From Pseudomonas sp. ATCC PTA-122608 (GTDB lineage Bacteria > Pseudomonadota > Gammaproteobacteria > Pseudomonadales > Pseudomonadaceae): a DNA stretch of 64,000 nucleotides. The notes under the pieces are model-generated. The model made no database searches and was not told the DNA's origin. It saw only the letters and a program-made list of their open reading frames with translations. The stretch's first letter is position 1. Every line of letters starts with the position of its first letter. Location of the stretch: contig NZ_LPNO01000007.1 in the NCBI RefSeq assembly GCF_001952855.1, positions 62,001-126,000 of the forward strand, read 5' to 3'. Below are positions 29,853 through 33,208 of this stretch, one piece after another. The position numbers and the translations under genes were made by a program.

Positions 29853-30671
29853 TCAGGATTTTTTGGCCTGCTGATACAACGGCATCACCTTCGGAATCGC
29901 CGCCTGCAACGAGGCGATCCGGCTGTCGGAGGCCGGGTGAGTGCTCATGAACTCAGGTGGCGAGCCTTCCGAGGCCTTGGCCATTTTGTTCCACAGGGTA
30001 ATTGCCGCGTTCGGGTTGTAACCGGCACGCGCCGACAACTCCAGGCCAATCAGGTCCGCTTCGTTTTCGTTGCTGCGGCTGTTGGGCAAGGTCATGCCGT
30101 AGTTGGCCACGGTATCGGCCAGCGCCAGGCTGTCCTGACCCAGGCCGAACAAGGCACCGGCTCCCTGCTTCGCCATTTCGATACCGTAAGCCTTGGACAT
30201 GGCTTCTCGGCCGTGTTCACGCAAGGCGTGGGCAATTTCATGACCCATCACGGCGGCGAGTTCGTCGTCGGTCAGTTTGAGATTGTCGATCAACGCGCTG
30301 TAGACAAAGATCTTGCCGCCAGGCCCGCAGTTGGCGTTCATCTCGTCACTTTTGATCAGGTTCACTTCCCACTTCCACTGCGCCGCATCCGGGCGGAAGG
30401 TGGGCGCCTGGGCGATCAAGCGGTTGGCTATTGCCTGCACGCGCTTGGCGTTGGCACTGGTCTTGTCCACCAGCCCTTTGCCACTGGCTTCACCCAGGGT
30501 CTGCTGGTACGACTGCGCATACATCTGGTCGACTTCCTGGCTCGACAACATACTGAACATGTACTGCTTGCGCTCAACGCCCACGGCGCCGCCGCTGGTG
30601 GTGTTGACCGACTGACAACCCGCGAGCAATACCGCCGCGCCCAACGCACATACCGCTACCGTCTTTTTCAT
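29853..30671 (-). CDS. M48 family metalloprotease, outer-membrane lipoprotein (LoiP-like)
   Basis: This zinc protease of 272 residues acts in the periplasm. It has a lipoprotein signal with lipobox LLAGC (Cys about residue 19), the active-site motif MGHEIAHALREH near residues 138-149, and the third ligand region NENEADLIGLEL downstream. It resembles LoiP (YggG), which processes or degrades outer-membrane proteins under stress. The start at 30671 has a purine-rich site upstream; the longer reading begins 45 codons earlier outside the signal. Substrates are unknown. Confidence 0.91.
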   Translation of the reverse strand: MKKTVAVCALGAAVLLAGCQSVNTTSGGAVGVERKQYMFSMLSSQEVDQMYAQSYQQTLGEASGKGLVDKTSANAKRVQAIANRLIAQAPTFRPDAAQWKWEVNLIKSDEMNANCGPGGKIFVYSALIDNLKLTDDELAAVMGHEIAHALREHGREAMSKAYGIEMAKQGAGALFGLGQDSLALADTVANYGMTLPNSRSNENEADLIGLELSARAGYNPNAAITLWNKMAKASEGSPPEFMSTHPASDSRIASLQAAIPKVMPLYQQAKKS

Positions 30672-30787: not shown

Positions 30788-31408
30788 CTAACCCGGAGTC
30801 AGGCACTCCGGCCCATTCAGCTTCGGATCGTTGACCATATTGGCCAGCACCCGCTCGCGCAACGCAGTGGGTTCACTGGCCAACAAAGCCTGCAAGGTGT
30901 GCAACGGTGTCTCGGGGTTCAACCAGGCGGCCTGCCCCGCCGCATCCAGAATGAGCGGCCGGCGCTGACTCTGCGCAGCCTGGGTCACTACCGCCGTGCT
31001 CAGCCACACCTGCTCCTGCACCGGATACGCTTCCCAGATTGCCGCAAAAAACAGCGTGCTGCCCTCCCCCGGCGTCAGCCAGTACGGGCGCTTGCGCTGG
31101 GTGCCGCGCCATTCGTAGAAACCATTGGCCGGCAACAGGCAGCGGCGCTGGCGAAAGGCTTCGCGAAACATCGGTTGCTCTGCCAGGGTTTCCGCGCGGG
31201 CATGAGCCGGGGTGCGCGAGAGATCGGTCAGCCAGGGCGGCGTCAGGCCCCAGCGCGCCCGAGCCAGGGTGTGCTGGCCGTCGCTGAGGCGCTGGATCAG
31301 CACCGAATCATTCGGAGAAATGTTCCACTGGGCCTGCTGGTCGGCCGGAAAGCCCGGCAAGGCAGCAAACGAGGGGTTCCAGCGAAACAGGGCATAACGT
31401 CCACACAT
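30788..31408 (-). CDS. SRAP family protein (YedK/HMCES-like) with altered active site
   Basis: SRAP proteins bind abasic sites in single-stranded DNA and form a covalent link through Cys2. The 206 residues keep the exposed MCGRY start (Cys2), the WGLTPPWL block, the PANGFYEW block with Glu99, and PLIL. In E. coli YedK the other active-site residues are Asn75 (in NARVET) and His160 (in IHDRRP), as I recall. Here the matching positions are His69 (in AHARAET) and Ser147 (in QSQRRP). The protein may bind without the usual link-reversal chemistry, or act by a variant of it. Confidence 0.87.
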   Translation of the reverse strand: MCGRYALFRWNPSFAALPGFPADQQAQWNISPNDSVLIQRLSDGQHTLARARWGLTPPWLTDLSRTPAHARAETLAEQPMFREAFRQRRCLLPANGFYEWRGTQRKRPYWLTPGEGSTLFFAAIWEAYPVQEQVWLSTAVVTQAAQSQRRPLILDAAGQAAWLNPETPLHTLQALLASEPTALRERVLANMVNDPKLNGPECLTPG

Positions 31409-31444: not shown

Positions 31445-31705
31445 CTAACAGACCAACACGTCGGGAAAGCTGTCGGGTTCATCGCCGGGCACCGGTTGCG
31501 CGCCGTTGTAGGCAGTGATCAGCTCACGGGCGTAGGCCGCCTGGTCATTCTCCACTGCCAGGGCCAGCAGGCCATAGATCGGTAATTCGCCGGTGCCACC
31601 GAGCAAATCGCGCCCCACCAGGTGCGCGGTGACGCCCTCGCTTTCGAGCATGCCTTGCAGCAGCTCACCTTCCATCAGGTTTTCCGGCTCGTAGATTCGC
31701 TGCAT
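31445..31705 (-). CDS. DUF2007 domain protein (putative signal-transducing protein)
   Basis: This small cytoplasmic protein of 86 residues matches DUF2007: MQRIYEPENLMEGELLQGMLESEGVTAHLVG with a ferredoxin-like pattern. The family is called putative prokaryotic signal-transducing protein; no member's function is firmly known to me. It lies 15 nt after the CPXCG-motif gene and 36 nt before the SRAP gene, all minus strand, so the three are probably one transcript. Confidence 0.82.
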   Translation of the reverse strand: MQRIYEPENLMEGELLQGMLESEGVTAHLVGRDLLGGTGELPIYGLLALAVENDQAAYARELITAYNGAQPVPGDEPDSFPDVLVC

Positions 31706-32041: not shown

Positions 32042-33208
32042 ATGATGGGCGAATTCGATACCATCCGACCTTACAACGACAGCGAAGTCCCGGCAGTGCT
32101 GGCCCGACTGTTCAGTGACAAGGCCTTTCTGGACATCCTGACCCACTTTCGCTTCCCGCGCTTTGCCGGCGCCTTCGGCTGGCTGCTCAAGCCGATGATC
32201 GCCCATAAACTGCGCCGTGAGTTTGCCGGCGTCACCACCGTGGCCACGCTACAGGACAAAGTCGAGTTTTACGTCGACCACACCATCGAGCGGGCGACCG
32301 ACGGGGTGACCTACACCGGCGTCGAGCAGTTCAAGTCCGGCAGCGCCTACCTGTTCCTGGCCAACCACCGCGACATCGTGATGGACCCGGCCTTCGTCAA
32401 CTACGCCGTGTACCACGCCGGCCTGCCCACGCCACGGATCGCCATCGGTGACAACCTGCTGCAAAAGCCGTTTGTCAGCGACTTGATGCGCCTGAACAAG
32501 AGTTTCATCGTGCACCGCTCGATCACCGGGCGCAAAGAGAAGATGGCGGCTTATCAGTTGCTGTCGGCGTACATCAACCATTCGATTCGCAATGACTGCC
32601 AGTCGATCTGGATCGCCCAGGCCGAAGGCCGCGCCAAGGATGGGGATGATCGCACCGAATCGGCGATCCTCAAGATGTTCCACATGAGCCGCAAGGACGA
32701 GCCGTTCGCCGAAGTCATCCAGTCACTGAACCTGACGCCGGTGTCCATCAGCTACGAATACGACCCGTGCGACGCAGCCAAGGCCCGCGAGCTGTACATC
32801 CGCGCCACCACCGGCACCTACAGCAAGGCGCCGGGGGAAGATGACGTGAGCATTGCGCTGGGCATCACCGGTTACAAGGGCCGGGTGCACGTCAACTTCG
32901 CGCCGCCGTTCACCGAGGCGTTCGAAGACACCAAACTGCTGGCGATCGAGATGGACCGGCAGATTCTGGGCGGTTATCGGTTGTTCCCGGTGCACTACCT
33001 GGCGTACGCCCAATGGAGCGATGCCGACCCCCAATTGCAGGTGCCGACCGCAGCCGAGGTGTTCCCTGCGGATGAGTTGGCCAAGGCGAAAGCCGAGTGG
33101 GAACGGCGCTTGAATGCATGCCCGGTAGAGCATCGGCCGTATCTGGTGCTGCAATACGCGACGCCGGTGAGGAATCAATACCGGGTCAAGGCCGGGATTG
33201 CCCTGTAA
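32042..33208 (+). CDS. Acyltransferase (1-acylglycerol-3-phosphate acyltransferase family)
   Basis: This 388-residue protein belongs to the PlsC/PlsB-like acyltransferase group. The expected first motif is present as LANHRDIVMDP (His109 to Asp115); the third block, WIAQAEGRAKDG, resembles the conserved (F/W)xEGxR-type motif. The His-Asp spacing is five residues rather than the usual four. It lacks a clear N-terminal membrane helix, unlike classical PlsC. The role is probably phospholipid or lipid-A-type acyl transfer, but the acceptor is unknown. Start: two Met codons follow AAGAGAG; the second is equally possible. Confidence 0.82.
   Translation: MMGEFDTIRPYNDSEVPAVLARLFSDKAFLDILTHFRFPRFAGAFGWLLKPMIAHKLRREFAGVTTVATLQDKVEFYVDHTIERATDGVTYTGVEQFKSGSAYLFLANHRDIVMDPAFVNYAVYHAGLPTPRIAIGDNLLQKPFVSDLMRLNKSFIVHRSITGRKEKMAAYQLLSAYINHSIRNDCQSIWIAQAEGRAKDGDDRTESAILKMFHMSRKDEPFAEVIQSLNLTPVSISYEYDPCDAAKARELYIRATTGTYSKAPGEDDVSIALGITGYKGRVHVNFAPPFTEAFEDTKLLAIEMDRQILGGYRLFPVHYLAYAQWSDADPQLQVPTAAEVFPADELAKAKAEWERRLNACPVEHRPYLVLQYATPVRNQYRVKAGIAL

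What the first reader, a model, noticed from the sequence alone, without database searches (positions are those of the whole stretch)
30788..31408. SRAP protein with two of four expected active-site residues changed
Cys2 and Glu99 of the abasic-site crosslinking site are present, but the positions of YedK Asn75 and His160 hold His69 and Ser147. The sequence is otherwise intact and in a normal context with CPXCG and DUF2007 genes, so this looks like a distinct SRAP subgroup rather than a decayed gene. It might bind abasic DNA without reversal, or have another role.
Basis: partly seen in the sequence, partly recalled or inferred. Interest (0 to 1): 0.55.

Follow-up and report, generated by a model that had tools for sequence, protein, structure and literature searches.

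The report
Pseudomonas core SRAP without catalytic histidine
Every Pseudomonas genome examined carries a DNA-damage-type protein of the YedK/HMCES family whose crosslinking centre is partly dismantled while much of the rest is kept, so it probably handles damaged DNA in a different, weaker or non-covalent way.

Summary
The SRAP gene (window 30788-31408, minus) is real and intact; Cys2 and Glu99 are present, His69 stands at YedK Asn75. Correction: Ser147 is not a substitution of His160. The segment bearing His160 is six residues long instead of twelve in 131 of 131 Pseudomonadaceae sequences: the His loop is deleted. An ortholog was found in 79 of 79 genomes of the genus, broken in one; in 22 of 79 it is the only SRAP found. 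The window's genome has three further, canonical SRAPs, two at LexA-type boxes and UmuD/UmuC-type genes, one near LigD. Syntenic relatives in family f7 keep loop length but have Thr/Ala/Gly for His and Asp/Gln for Glu; family f33 has lost all four residues. Of 20 other columns conserved in canonical SRAPs, 15 are unchanged in all 41 His-less rows examined. Residue 2 switched between Cys and Ser/Thr at least four times, in genes mostly under purifying selection. The model is a full SRAP fold. Best reading: an SRAP subfamily relieved of covalent chemistry, probably a non-covalent or weakly covalent DNA/abasic-site binder outside SOS. Biochemistry untested. New variant of a known kind.

The parts
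30788..31408 (-). SRAP-family protein, 206 aa, lacking the His160 loop; Cys2, His69 (YedK Asn75), Glu99 (YedK Glu105), Arg71 (YedK Arg77), Arg149 (YedK Arg162)
   Evidence: ORF and Pfam, alignments, AlphaFold2 model pLDDT 96.3, PDB fold matches
30965..30982 (-). codons of residues 143-148, the six-residue segment that stands where canonical SRAPs have twelve residues with His160; in the model the tight turn between strands 133-145 and 148-151
   Evidence: segment length; secondary structure of the model; coordinates worked out by hand from the sequence
31445..31705 (-). DUF2007 gene (PF09413), directly upstream, gap 36 bases
   Evidence: Pfam; gap; detected in 184 of 185 Pseudomonadaceae loci, the one miss begins at a contig end
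31721..31912 (-). CPXCG cysteine-rich small protein gene (PF14255), gap 15 bases to DUF2007
   Evidence: Pfam; gap; detected in 181 of 185 loci; two misses are contig ends, two are one genome (G096) with enough flank; not detected in the f7 loci
32042..33208 (+). divergent acyltransferase gene, conserved landmark of the locus
   Evidence: Pfam PF01553; detected in 182 of 185 loci and in the 9 f7 genomes
29853..30671 (-). downstream M48 peptidase with a lipoprotein-like start; not shown to be a constant neighbour
   Evidence: Pfam PF01435; start and 116-base gap; detected in 114 of 185 loci, many with only 1.5-2 kb of flank

Best explanation
The gene belongs to a vertically inherited SRAP subfamily of Pseudomonadaceae, with relatives in other families of the order, whose covalent centre has been taken apart while 15 of 20 other conserved SRAP columns, the conserved arginines among them, are unchanged (shown on 41 representative rows). 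It most likely still binds single-stranded DNA, junctions or abasic sites in the SRAP cleft, mainly non-covalently, as a sensor or shield outside the SOS regulon (inferred). In members with Cys2 and Glu99, such as the window's, a slow covalent trap of already open abasic aldehydes may remain; in Ser2/Thr2 members only a reversible Schiff base of the N-terminal amine is expected (both inferred from YedK mutants).
For: Ortholog in 79 of 79 genomes of the genus, sole SRAP found in 22 of 79. His160 absent in 131 of 131 Pseudomonadaceae, 9 of 9 f7 and 16 of 16 f33 sequences, against intact C/N/E/H in 79 of 82 other rows, YedK among them. Of 24 columns conserved in at least 88% of 51 canonical rows, 20 are non-catalytic; 15 of them (YedK M1, R4, P40, W61, P65, W67, A76, R77, E79, R95, W106, R162, P164, W175 and the Leu at 176) do not change in 41 His-less rows. 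Residue 2 is Ser/Thr in 12 of 160 unique Pseudomonadaceae sequences, at least four changes by parsimony on 19 rows, with dN/dS 0.03-0.15 inside three close Ser2/Thr2 groups. Full SRAP fold: pLDDT 96.3, Z 24.9 and 23.8 to HMCES 6oov and YedK 6nua. No LexA-type box with one mismatch or fewer between 26484 and 39098, whereas two canonical paralogs have exact boxes between them and a divergent Peptidase_S24 plus impB/mucB/samB pair, and the third lies near a LigD gene.
Against: No biochemistry: DNA binding is inferred from kept residues and fold. Glu99 is invariant in all 159 covered Pseudomonadaceae sequences and Cys2 is kept in 148 of 160, which suggests that some N-terminal chemistry still matters there. 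Five of the 20 columns (G3, N37, P115, A129, A152) vary in part of the set. Ser2 sequence L241 against its four nearest Ser2 relatives gives dN/dS 0.28-0.37 and far Ser2 pairs 0.24-0.62, so looser constraint in some lineages is not excluded. A single origin of the His loss is weakly supported: two changes needed in the careful tree, one clade in 18% of its bootstraps, which had not settled; AU test p 0.247 does not reject one clade; the wider quick tree has one clade with support 30. Partners are unknown.
Confidence: 0.5

Rival explanations
1. Still a covalent abasic-site trap: Cys2 and Glu99 form the thiazolidine, only more slowly, and without His the crosslink is hardly reversed, giving long-lived protection.
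For: Cys2 in 148 of 160 and Glu99 in 159 of 159 covered unique Pseudomonadaceae sequences. In YedK H160A is at least 10-fold slower but active, N75A only modestly slower on an internal site, and H160Q reversal is severely slowed (PMC9436759, passages).
Against: Residue 2 is not constant in the same orthologs (four or more changes), and Ser2/Thr2 genes look constrained; in three genomes (G013, G028, G054) the Ser2 form is the only SRAP found; f7 members have Asp/Gln for Glu. YedK N75A did not fully crosslink a 3' unsaturated aldehyde in 20 min (paper, passage).
Confidence: 0.27
2. An abasic-site lyase or reversible Schiff-base former: the free N-terminal amine after Met removal, helped by Glu99, attacks the aldehyde; the thiol is dispensable.
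For: Glu99 invariant while residue 2 varies among Cys, Ser, Thr, all compatible with Met removal (recalled rule). YedK C2A and C2S gave borohydride-trapped Schiff base, C2A is a Glu-dependent lyase, and C2A H160Q forms the Schiff base as fast as C2A (PMC9436759, passages).
Against: f7 has Asp/Gln and f33 Val/Ile/Leu at the Glu, so it cannot hold for the whole set. C2A H160Q lyase is 2.5-fold slower than C2A.
Confidence: 0.12
3. The fold has been taken over for another job, such as binding a protein partner (DUF2007, CPXCG) or a small ligand, with no role at abasic DNA.
For: Pairing with DUF2007 in 184 of 185 Pseudomonadaceae loci and in 8 of 9 f7 genomes; no SOS context.
Against: The divergent acyltransferase is about as constant (182 of 185; 9 of 9 f7 genomes), so the pairing may be plain synteny. 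Conserved arginines and tryptophans of SRAPs are kept.
Confidence: 0.1
4. A decaying gene.
For: Loss of catalytic residues; a broken copy in G034; higher dN/dS among some Ser2 lineages.
Against: Found in 79 of 79 genomes; median dN/dS 0.097 over 8380 pairs; in G034 PF02586 matches fall into nine pieces, which fits assembly indels (inference).
Confidence: 0.01

Closest known systems
E. coli YedK
   Same: Whole SRAP fold (6nua Z 23.8, rmsd 2.6 over 199 residues); Cys2, Glu, Arg77, Arg162, Trp106 equivalents
   Different: His160 loop deleted, Asn75 replaced by His, 24-27% identity in the structure alignments
Human HMCES SRAP domain
   Same: Fold (6oov Z 24.9, rmsd 2.0 over 204 residues)
   Different: HMCES is described as a cross-linking SRAP (PMC9436759, passages); about 26% identity
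The three canonical SRAPs of the same genome (L001, L002, L003)
   Same: PF02586
   Different: C/N/E/H intact; two beside Peptidase_S24 plus impB/mucB/samB genes with exact LexA-type boxes, one near a LigD gene; 21-24% identity to the window protein
f33 group of the same order (16 loci) and L067 of f34
   Same: Lack His160; join the Pseudomonadaceae clade (97/80, support 44)
   Different: All four catalytic residues gone in f33 (Ala/Thr2, Cys75, Val/Ile/Leu105, Thr/Ser/Gly160); His loop length kept; an M16-type peptidase gene directly follows

Membership tests
SRAP domain superfamily (PF02586) | Profile match over the curated cut-off | tested here: met
   148.9 bits against 27.1
SRAP domain superfamily (PF02586) | SRAP fold | tested here: met
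   Model pLDDT 96.3; the 15 entries listed by VIA-align, Z 19.3-25.2, are YedK, HMCES, or entries that PMC3765255 counts as SRAP
YedK/HMCES-type cross-linking SRAP | Cys at residue 2 | tested here: met
   Cys2 in the window protein; 148 of 160 unique Pseudomonadaceae sequences, the rest Ser or Thr
YedK/HMCES-type cross-linking SRAP | Active-site Glu (YedK Glu105) | tested here: met
   Glu99; 159 of 159 covered
YedK/HMCES-type cross-linking SRAP | Active-site His (YedK His160) | tested here: not met
   Segment of 6 instead of 12 residues, 131 of 131; no invariant His elsewhere
YedK/HMCES-type cross-linking SRAP | Asn75 | tested here: not met
   His69; His 148, Gln 12 of 160
YedK/HMCES-type cross-linking SRAP | Thiazolidine crosslink to abasic ssDNA | not testable with these tools
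   Needs the purified protein
SOS-associated SRAP (contexts of PMC3765255) | Neighbouring translesion polymerase, Ku/ligase or LexA box | tested here: not met
   No CTGT-N8-ACAG box (recalled motif) with one mismatch or fewer between 26484 and 39098; neighbours are CPXCG, DUF2007, M48, acyltransferase, GDT1 and a methyltransferase

The most novel reading that the evidence does not exclude
A pseudo-SRAP lineage: an abasic-site crosslinker turned, by loss of the catalytic His and then in different branches of Glu, Asn or Cys2, into a non-covalent DNA-damage sensor that Pseudomonas keeps outside the SOS response, perhaps signalling through the co-encoded DUF2007 protein.
Probability: 0.35. Interest if true: 0.68.

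Novelty: new variant of a known kind. Interest (0 to 1): 0.52.

Why it matters
The 2013 paper that named SRAP calls its Cys, Glu and His absolutely conserved (PMC3765255, section 6 read). Here a gene found in all 79 sampled genomes of the genus, and the only SRAP found in 22 of them, breaks that rule, and nature has supplied a graded series of losses (His; His and Glu; His and Cys; all four). If the reading holds, that series lets one ask which SRAP functions need the crosslink and which need only DNA binding. It also warns against reading 'SOS response-associated peptidase' annotations in Pseudomonas as YedK equivalents.

Tried and rejected
Rejected: plain His-to-Ser substitution; decay; another invariant His.

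Led nowhere: first AlphaFold2 job with 24 close orthologs, pLDDT 38.7. No coordinates of the second model could be read, so active-site distances were not measured. NCBIfam gives only matches under its cut-off, to NF007413. Two plasmid searches, with an f33 protein and with the window protein, had all 1637 and 1653 record matches under 60% identity. Paper searches listed no paper on a His-less SRAP by title or start of abstract; two of them listed only 30 of 194 and 15 of 298 papers, and the library lacks many papers, for example doi 10.1093/nar/gkz744. A search for HMCES mutant names in PMC10250235 found none. A sigma-70-type promoter scan of the operon found nothing and terminator-like sites were at chance. 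The test of Pseudomonadaceae plus f7 as one clade did not finish. The exact LexA-type boxes at the paralogs were found without a chance estimate.

Rows dropped: 12 ORFs without a clear start or with short coverage before the count (L122, L202, L093, L204, L074, L054 twice, L094, L206, L208, L207, L210). The 239 aligned rows were thinned by identity to 106 for the tree; 13 long or divergent rows (two of them, L205 and L213, not C/N/E/H) were left out, and L219 too. Of 15 new phylum-level rows 13 read C/N/E/H and entered the tree; L328 (reads SSEH, start uncertain) and L331 (an f33 duplicate) did not. Alignment A4 took 90 of the 93 rows (without YedK, L065, L198). 'CAN' was defined by C/N/E/H, so 100% at those four columns is by construction; the unbiased figure is 79 of 82. 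Genomes matched in the order and phylum searches were read only in part, so absence of the trait elsewhere is not shown.

Full report
Observation. The ORF at 30788-31408 on the minus strand encodes 206 residues, matches PF02586 with 148.9 bits, and begins Met-Cys-Gly-Arg. Against YedK (sequence verified) it has Cys2, Glu99 for Glu105 and His69 for Asn75. The fourth position needs correcting. Between the conserved Thr (YedK T149) and Arg (R162), which frame the His160 loop, 76 of 79 canonical sequences have 12 residues, as do 9 of 9 from family f7 and 16 of 16 from family f33; 131 of 131 Pseudomonadaceae sequences have six. The His-bearing loop is therefore shortened, and Ser147 lies in a tight turn between strands 133-145 and 148-151 of the model. 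That column takes Ser, Asn, Thr, Gly, Ala, Tyr, Pro, Glu or Asp, never His, in 159 covered sequences, and its entropy is at the 94th percentile of the protein.

Distribution. An ortholog was found in 79 of 79 genomes of the window's genus; the genus is Pseudomonas, judging by the named loci of up to 99% identity. I read 78 of the 79 (50 by handle, and loci L280-L307 for 28 more; G038 is split over two contigs and read in part); the 79th, G034, is broken into pieces. Residue 2 is Cys in 73 of 78 and Ser in 5 of 78 (counts added up); Glu99 is present in every copy that covers it. A PF02586 search counts one SRAP only in 22 of these 79 genomes, so there the variant stands alone; three of the 22 (G013, G028, G054) carry the Ser2 form. 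The window's genome has four SRAPs; the other three read C/N/E/H.

Context. CPXCG, DUF2007 and SRAP follow one another with gaps of 15 and 36 bases. In 185 Pseudomonadaceae loci (several loci of one genome among them) DUF2007 is detected in 184, the divergent acyltransferase in 182, CPXCG in 181, M48 in 114. In family f7 the acyltransferase and SRAP stand together in 9 of 9 genomes and DUF2007 in 8 of 9, CPXCG in none, so this is the same locus. As the acyltransferase is about as constant as DUF2007, adjacency alone does not prove a functional pair. No LexA-type box (CTGT-N8-ACAG, a motif recalled, one mismatch allowed) lies between 26484 and 39098 of the window, which has six such sites in all against 21 expected by chance. 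Two canonical paralogs of the genome have exact boxes between the SRAP gene and a divergent pair of genes matching Peptidase_S24 and the impB/mucB/samB family; the third has no exact box and lies near a LigD gene. Such contexts are among those listed for SRAP in 2013 (PMC3765255, section 6).

Relatives and tree. Among 239 aligned rows the signature at YedK 2/75/105/160 is C/N/E/H in 79 of the 82 rows outside the His-less groups. Inside them: Pseudomonadaceae C, S or T / H or Q / E / gap (131), f7 C / N / D or Q / T, A or G (9), f33 A or T / C / V, I or L / T, S or G (16), and L067 A/T/D/S. With the four columns and the loop left out, a careful tree of 93 rows joins 34 His-less rows with 97/80 (by number, and by the tree, Pseudomonadaceae, f33 and L067) and 42 rows with 98/90, namely all 41 His-less rows and one canonical row (L218 in the tree). 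One clade for all His-less rows appears in 18% of bootstraps, which had not fully settled, is not rejected (AU p 0.247), and is the best tree of a wider sample with support 30. So one loss of His, with the loop deletion later in Pseudomonadaceae, is the simplest account but is not proven.

What is kept. In 51 canonical rows 24 columns are at least 88% conserved. Four are the catalytic ones. Of the other 20, fifteen (YedK M1, R4, P40, W61, P65, W67, A76, R77, E79, R95, W106, R162, P164, W175, and Leu at 176) are unchanged in the 19 Pseudomonadaceae, 7 f7 and 14 f33 rows and in L067; five (G3, N37, P115, A129, A152) vary in part of the set, N37 in 9 of the 26 Pseudomonadaceae and f7 rows. The 2013 paper predicted DNA contact for two arginines of 1zn6, R86 and R180, which I equate with YedK R77 and R162 by motif (inference). 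Thus the fold and the likely DNA pocket are kept, and the chemistry is what has changed.

Selection. dN/dS has a median of 0.097 (5-95%: 0.04-0.40) over 8380 pairs with dS 0.2-1.0. Among four closely related Ser2 sequences it is 0.03-0.15, between L243 and L244 0.11, among three Thr2 sequences 0.11-0.15. Against that, L241 compared with those four gives 0.28-0.37, and pairs between far Ser2 lineages 0.24-0.62; saturation of dS may inflate these (inference), and looser constraint in some lineages is not excluded. Residue 2 changes at least four times by parsimony on the 19 Pseudomonadaceae rows; the direction is not shown by that count, and Cys as the older state is my inference from the canonical and f7 sequences. 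So Cys-less forms, at least in three groups, are maintained.

Fold. With 90 diverse SRAPs as alignment the model has pLDDT 96.3 and pTM 0.92. Foldseek's 21 matches at E up to 0.001 are YedK, HMCES and the structural-genomics entries that PMC3765255 counts as SRAP; VIA-align gives Z 24.9 to HMCES 6oov, 23.8 to YedK 6nua, 23.9 to the C2A Schiff-base complex 8d2m.

Mechanism. From YedK mutants (PMC9436759, passages seen): Glu105 is the most important residue besides Cys2, in ring opening and Schiff-base formation; His160 acts in ring opening, H160A slows crosslinking at least 10-fold and H160Q severely slows reversal; N75A has a modest effect on an internal site; C2A and C2S gave a trapped Schiff base, and C2A cleaves the strand. 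Applied to the window protein (inference): slow, hardly reversible crosslinking is possible; in Ser2 and Thr2 orthologs only a Schiff base; in f33 none of this. No catalytic residue is common to the whole set, so what selection keeps across it is more likely binding than crosslinking. I put 0.5 on a mainly non-covalent DNA or abasic-site binder, 0.27 on a slow covalent trap, 0.12 on a lyase, 0.1 on another role.

Novelty. In what I could see (listings; passages of PMC9436759, PMC3765255, PMC7789669 and PMC11078745; section 6 of PMC3765255) no His-less SRAP clade is described; subscription papers are largely missing from the library. It is a new variant of a known family.

Noticed in passing
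L059, L060, L062-L064, L255-L265; L067: His-less SRAPs of family f33 (16 of 16 loci) and of L067 are directly followed on the same strand by a gene of one homology group, identified as M16 (insulinase-like) peptidase in the two that were scanned (L060, L067); a gene with a TetR C-terminal match (two scanned) lies divergently in f33 loci.
   Followed up: partly
L054 (G034:C1:5875264-5879879): The ortholog is split over at least three pieces; PF02586 matches in that genome number nine, which suggests assembly indels rather than a real pseudogene.
   Followed up: partly
L080 (same genus, G027) and L213 (G260): SRAPs outside the clade with Asn75 alone replaced (Val, Ser) and Cys, Glu, His kept.
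   Followed up: no
L205-L208, L210 (G311, G366, G230): Very divergent SRAP-like ORFs, up to three matches in one genome; L205 reads Ser/Asn/Glu/Gly at the four positions, alignment uncertain.
   Followed up: no
L277 and L279 (window's genome, contigs C8 and C4): Two canonical SRAPs with exact LexA-type boxes opposite Peptidase_S24 plus impB/mucB/samB gene pairs; two such modules in one genome.
   Followed up: partly
f7 loci L068, L072, L250, L251, L252: These f7 SRAPs are 201 aa long against 221 aa in the other four f7 sequences; in L246, L249 and L250 the profile match runs on past a stop codon.
   Followed up: no
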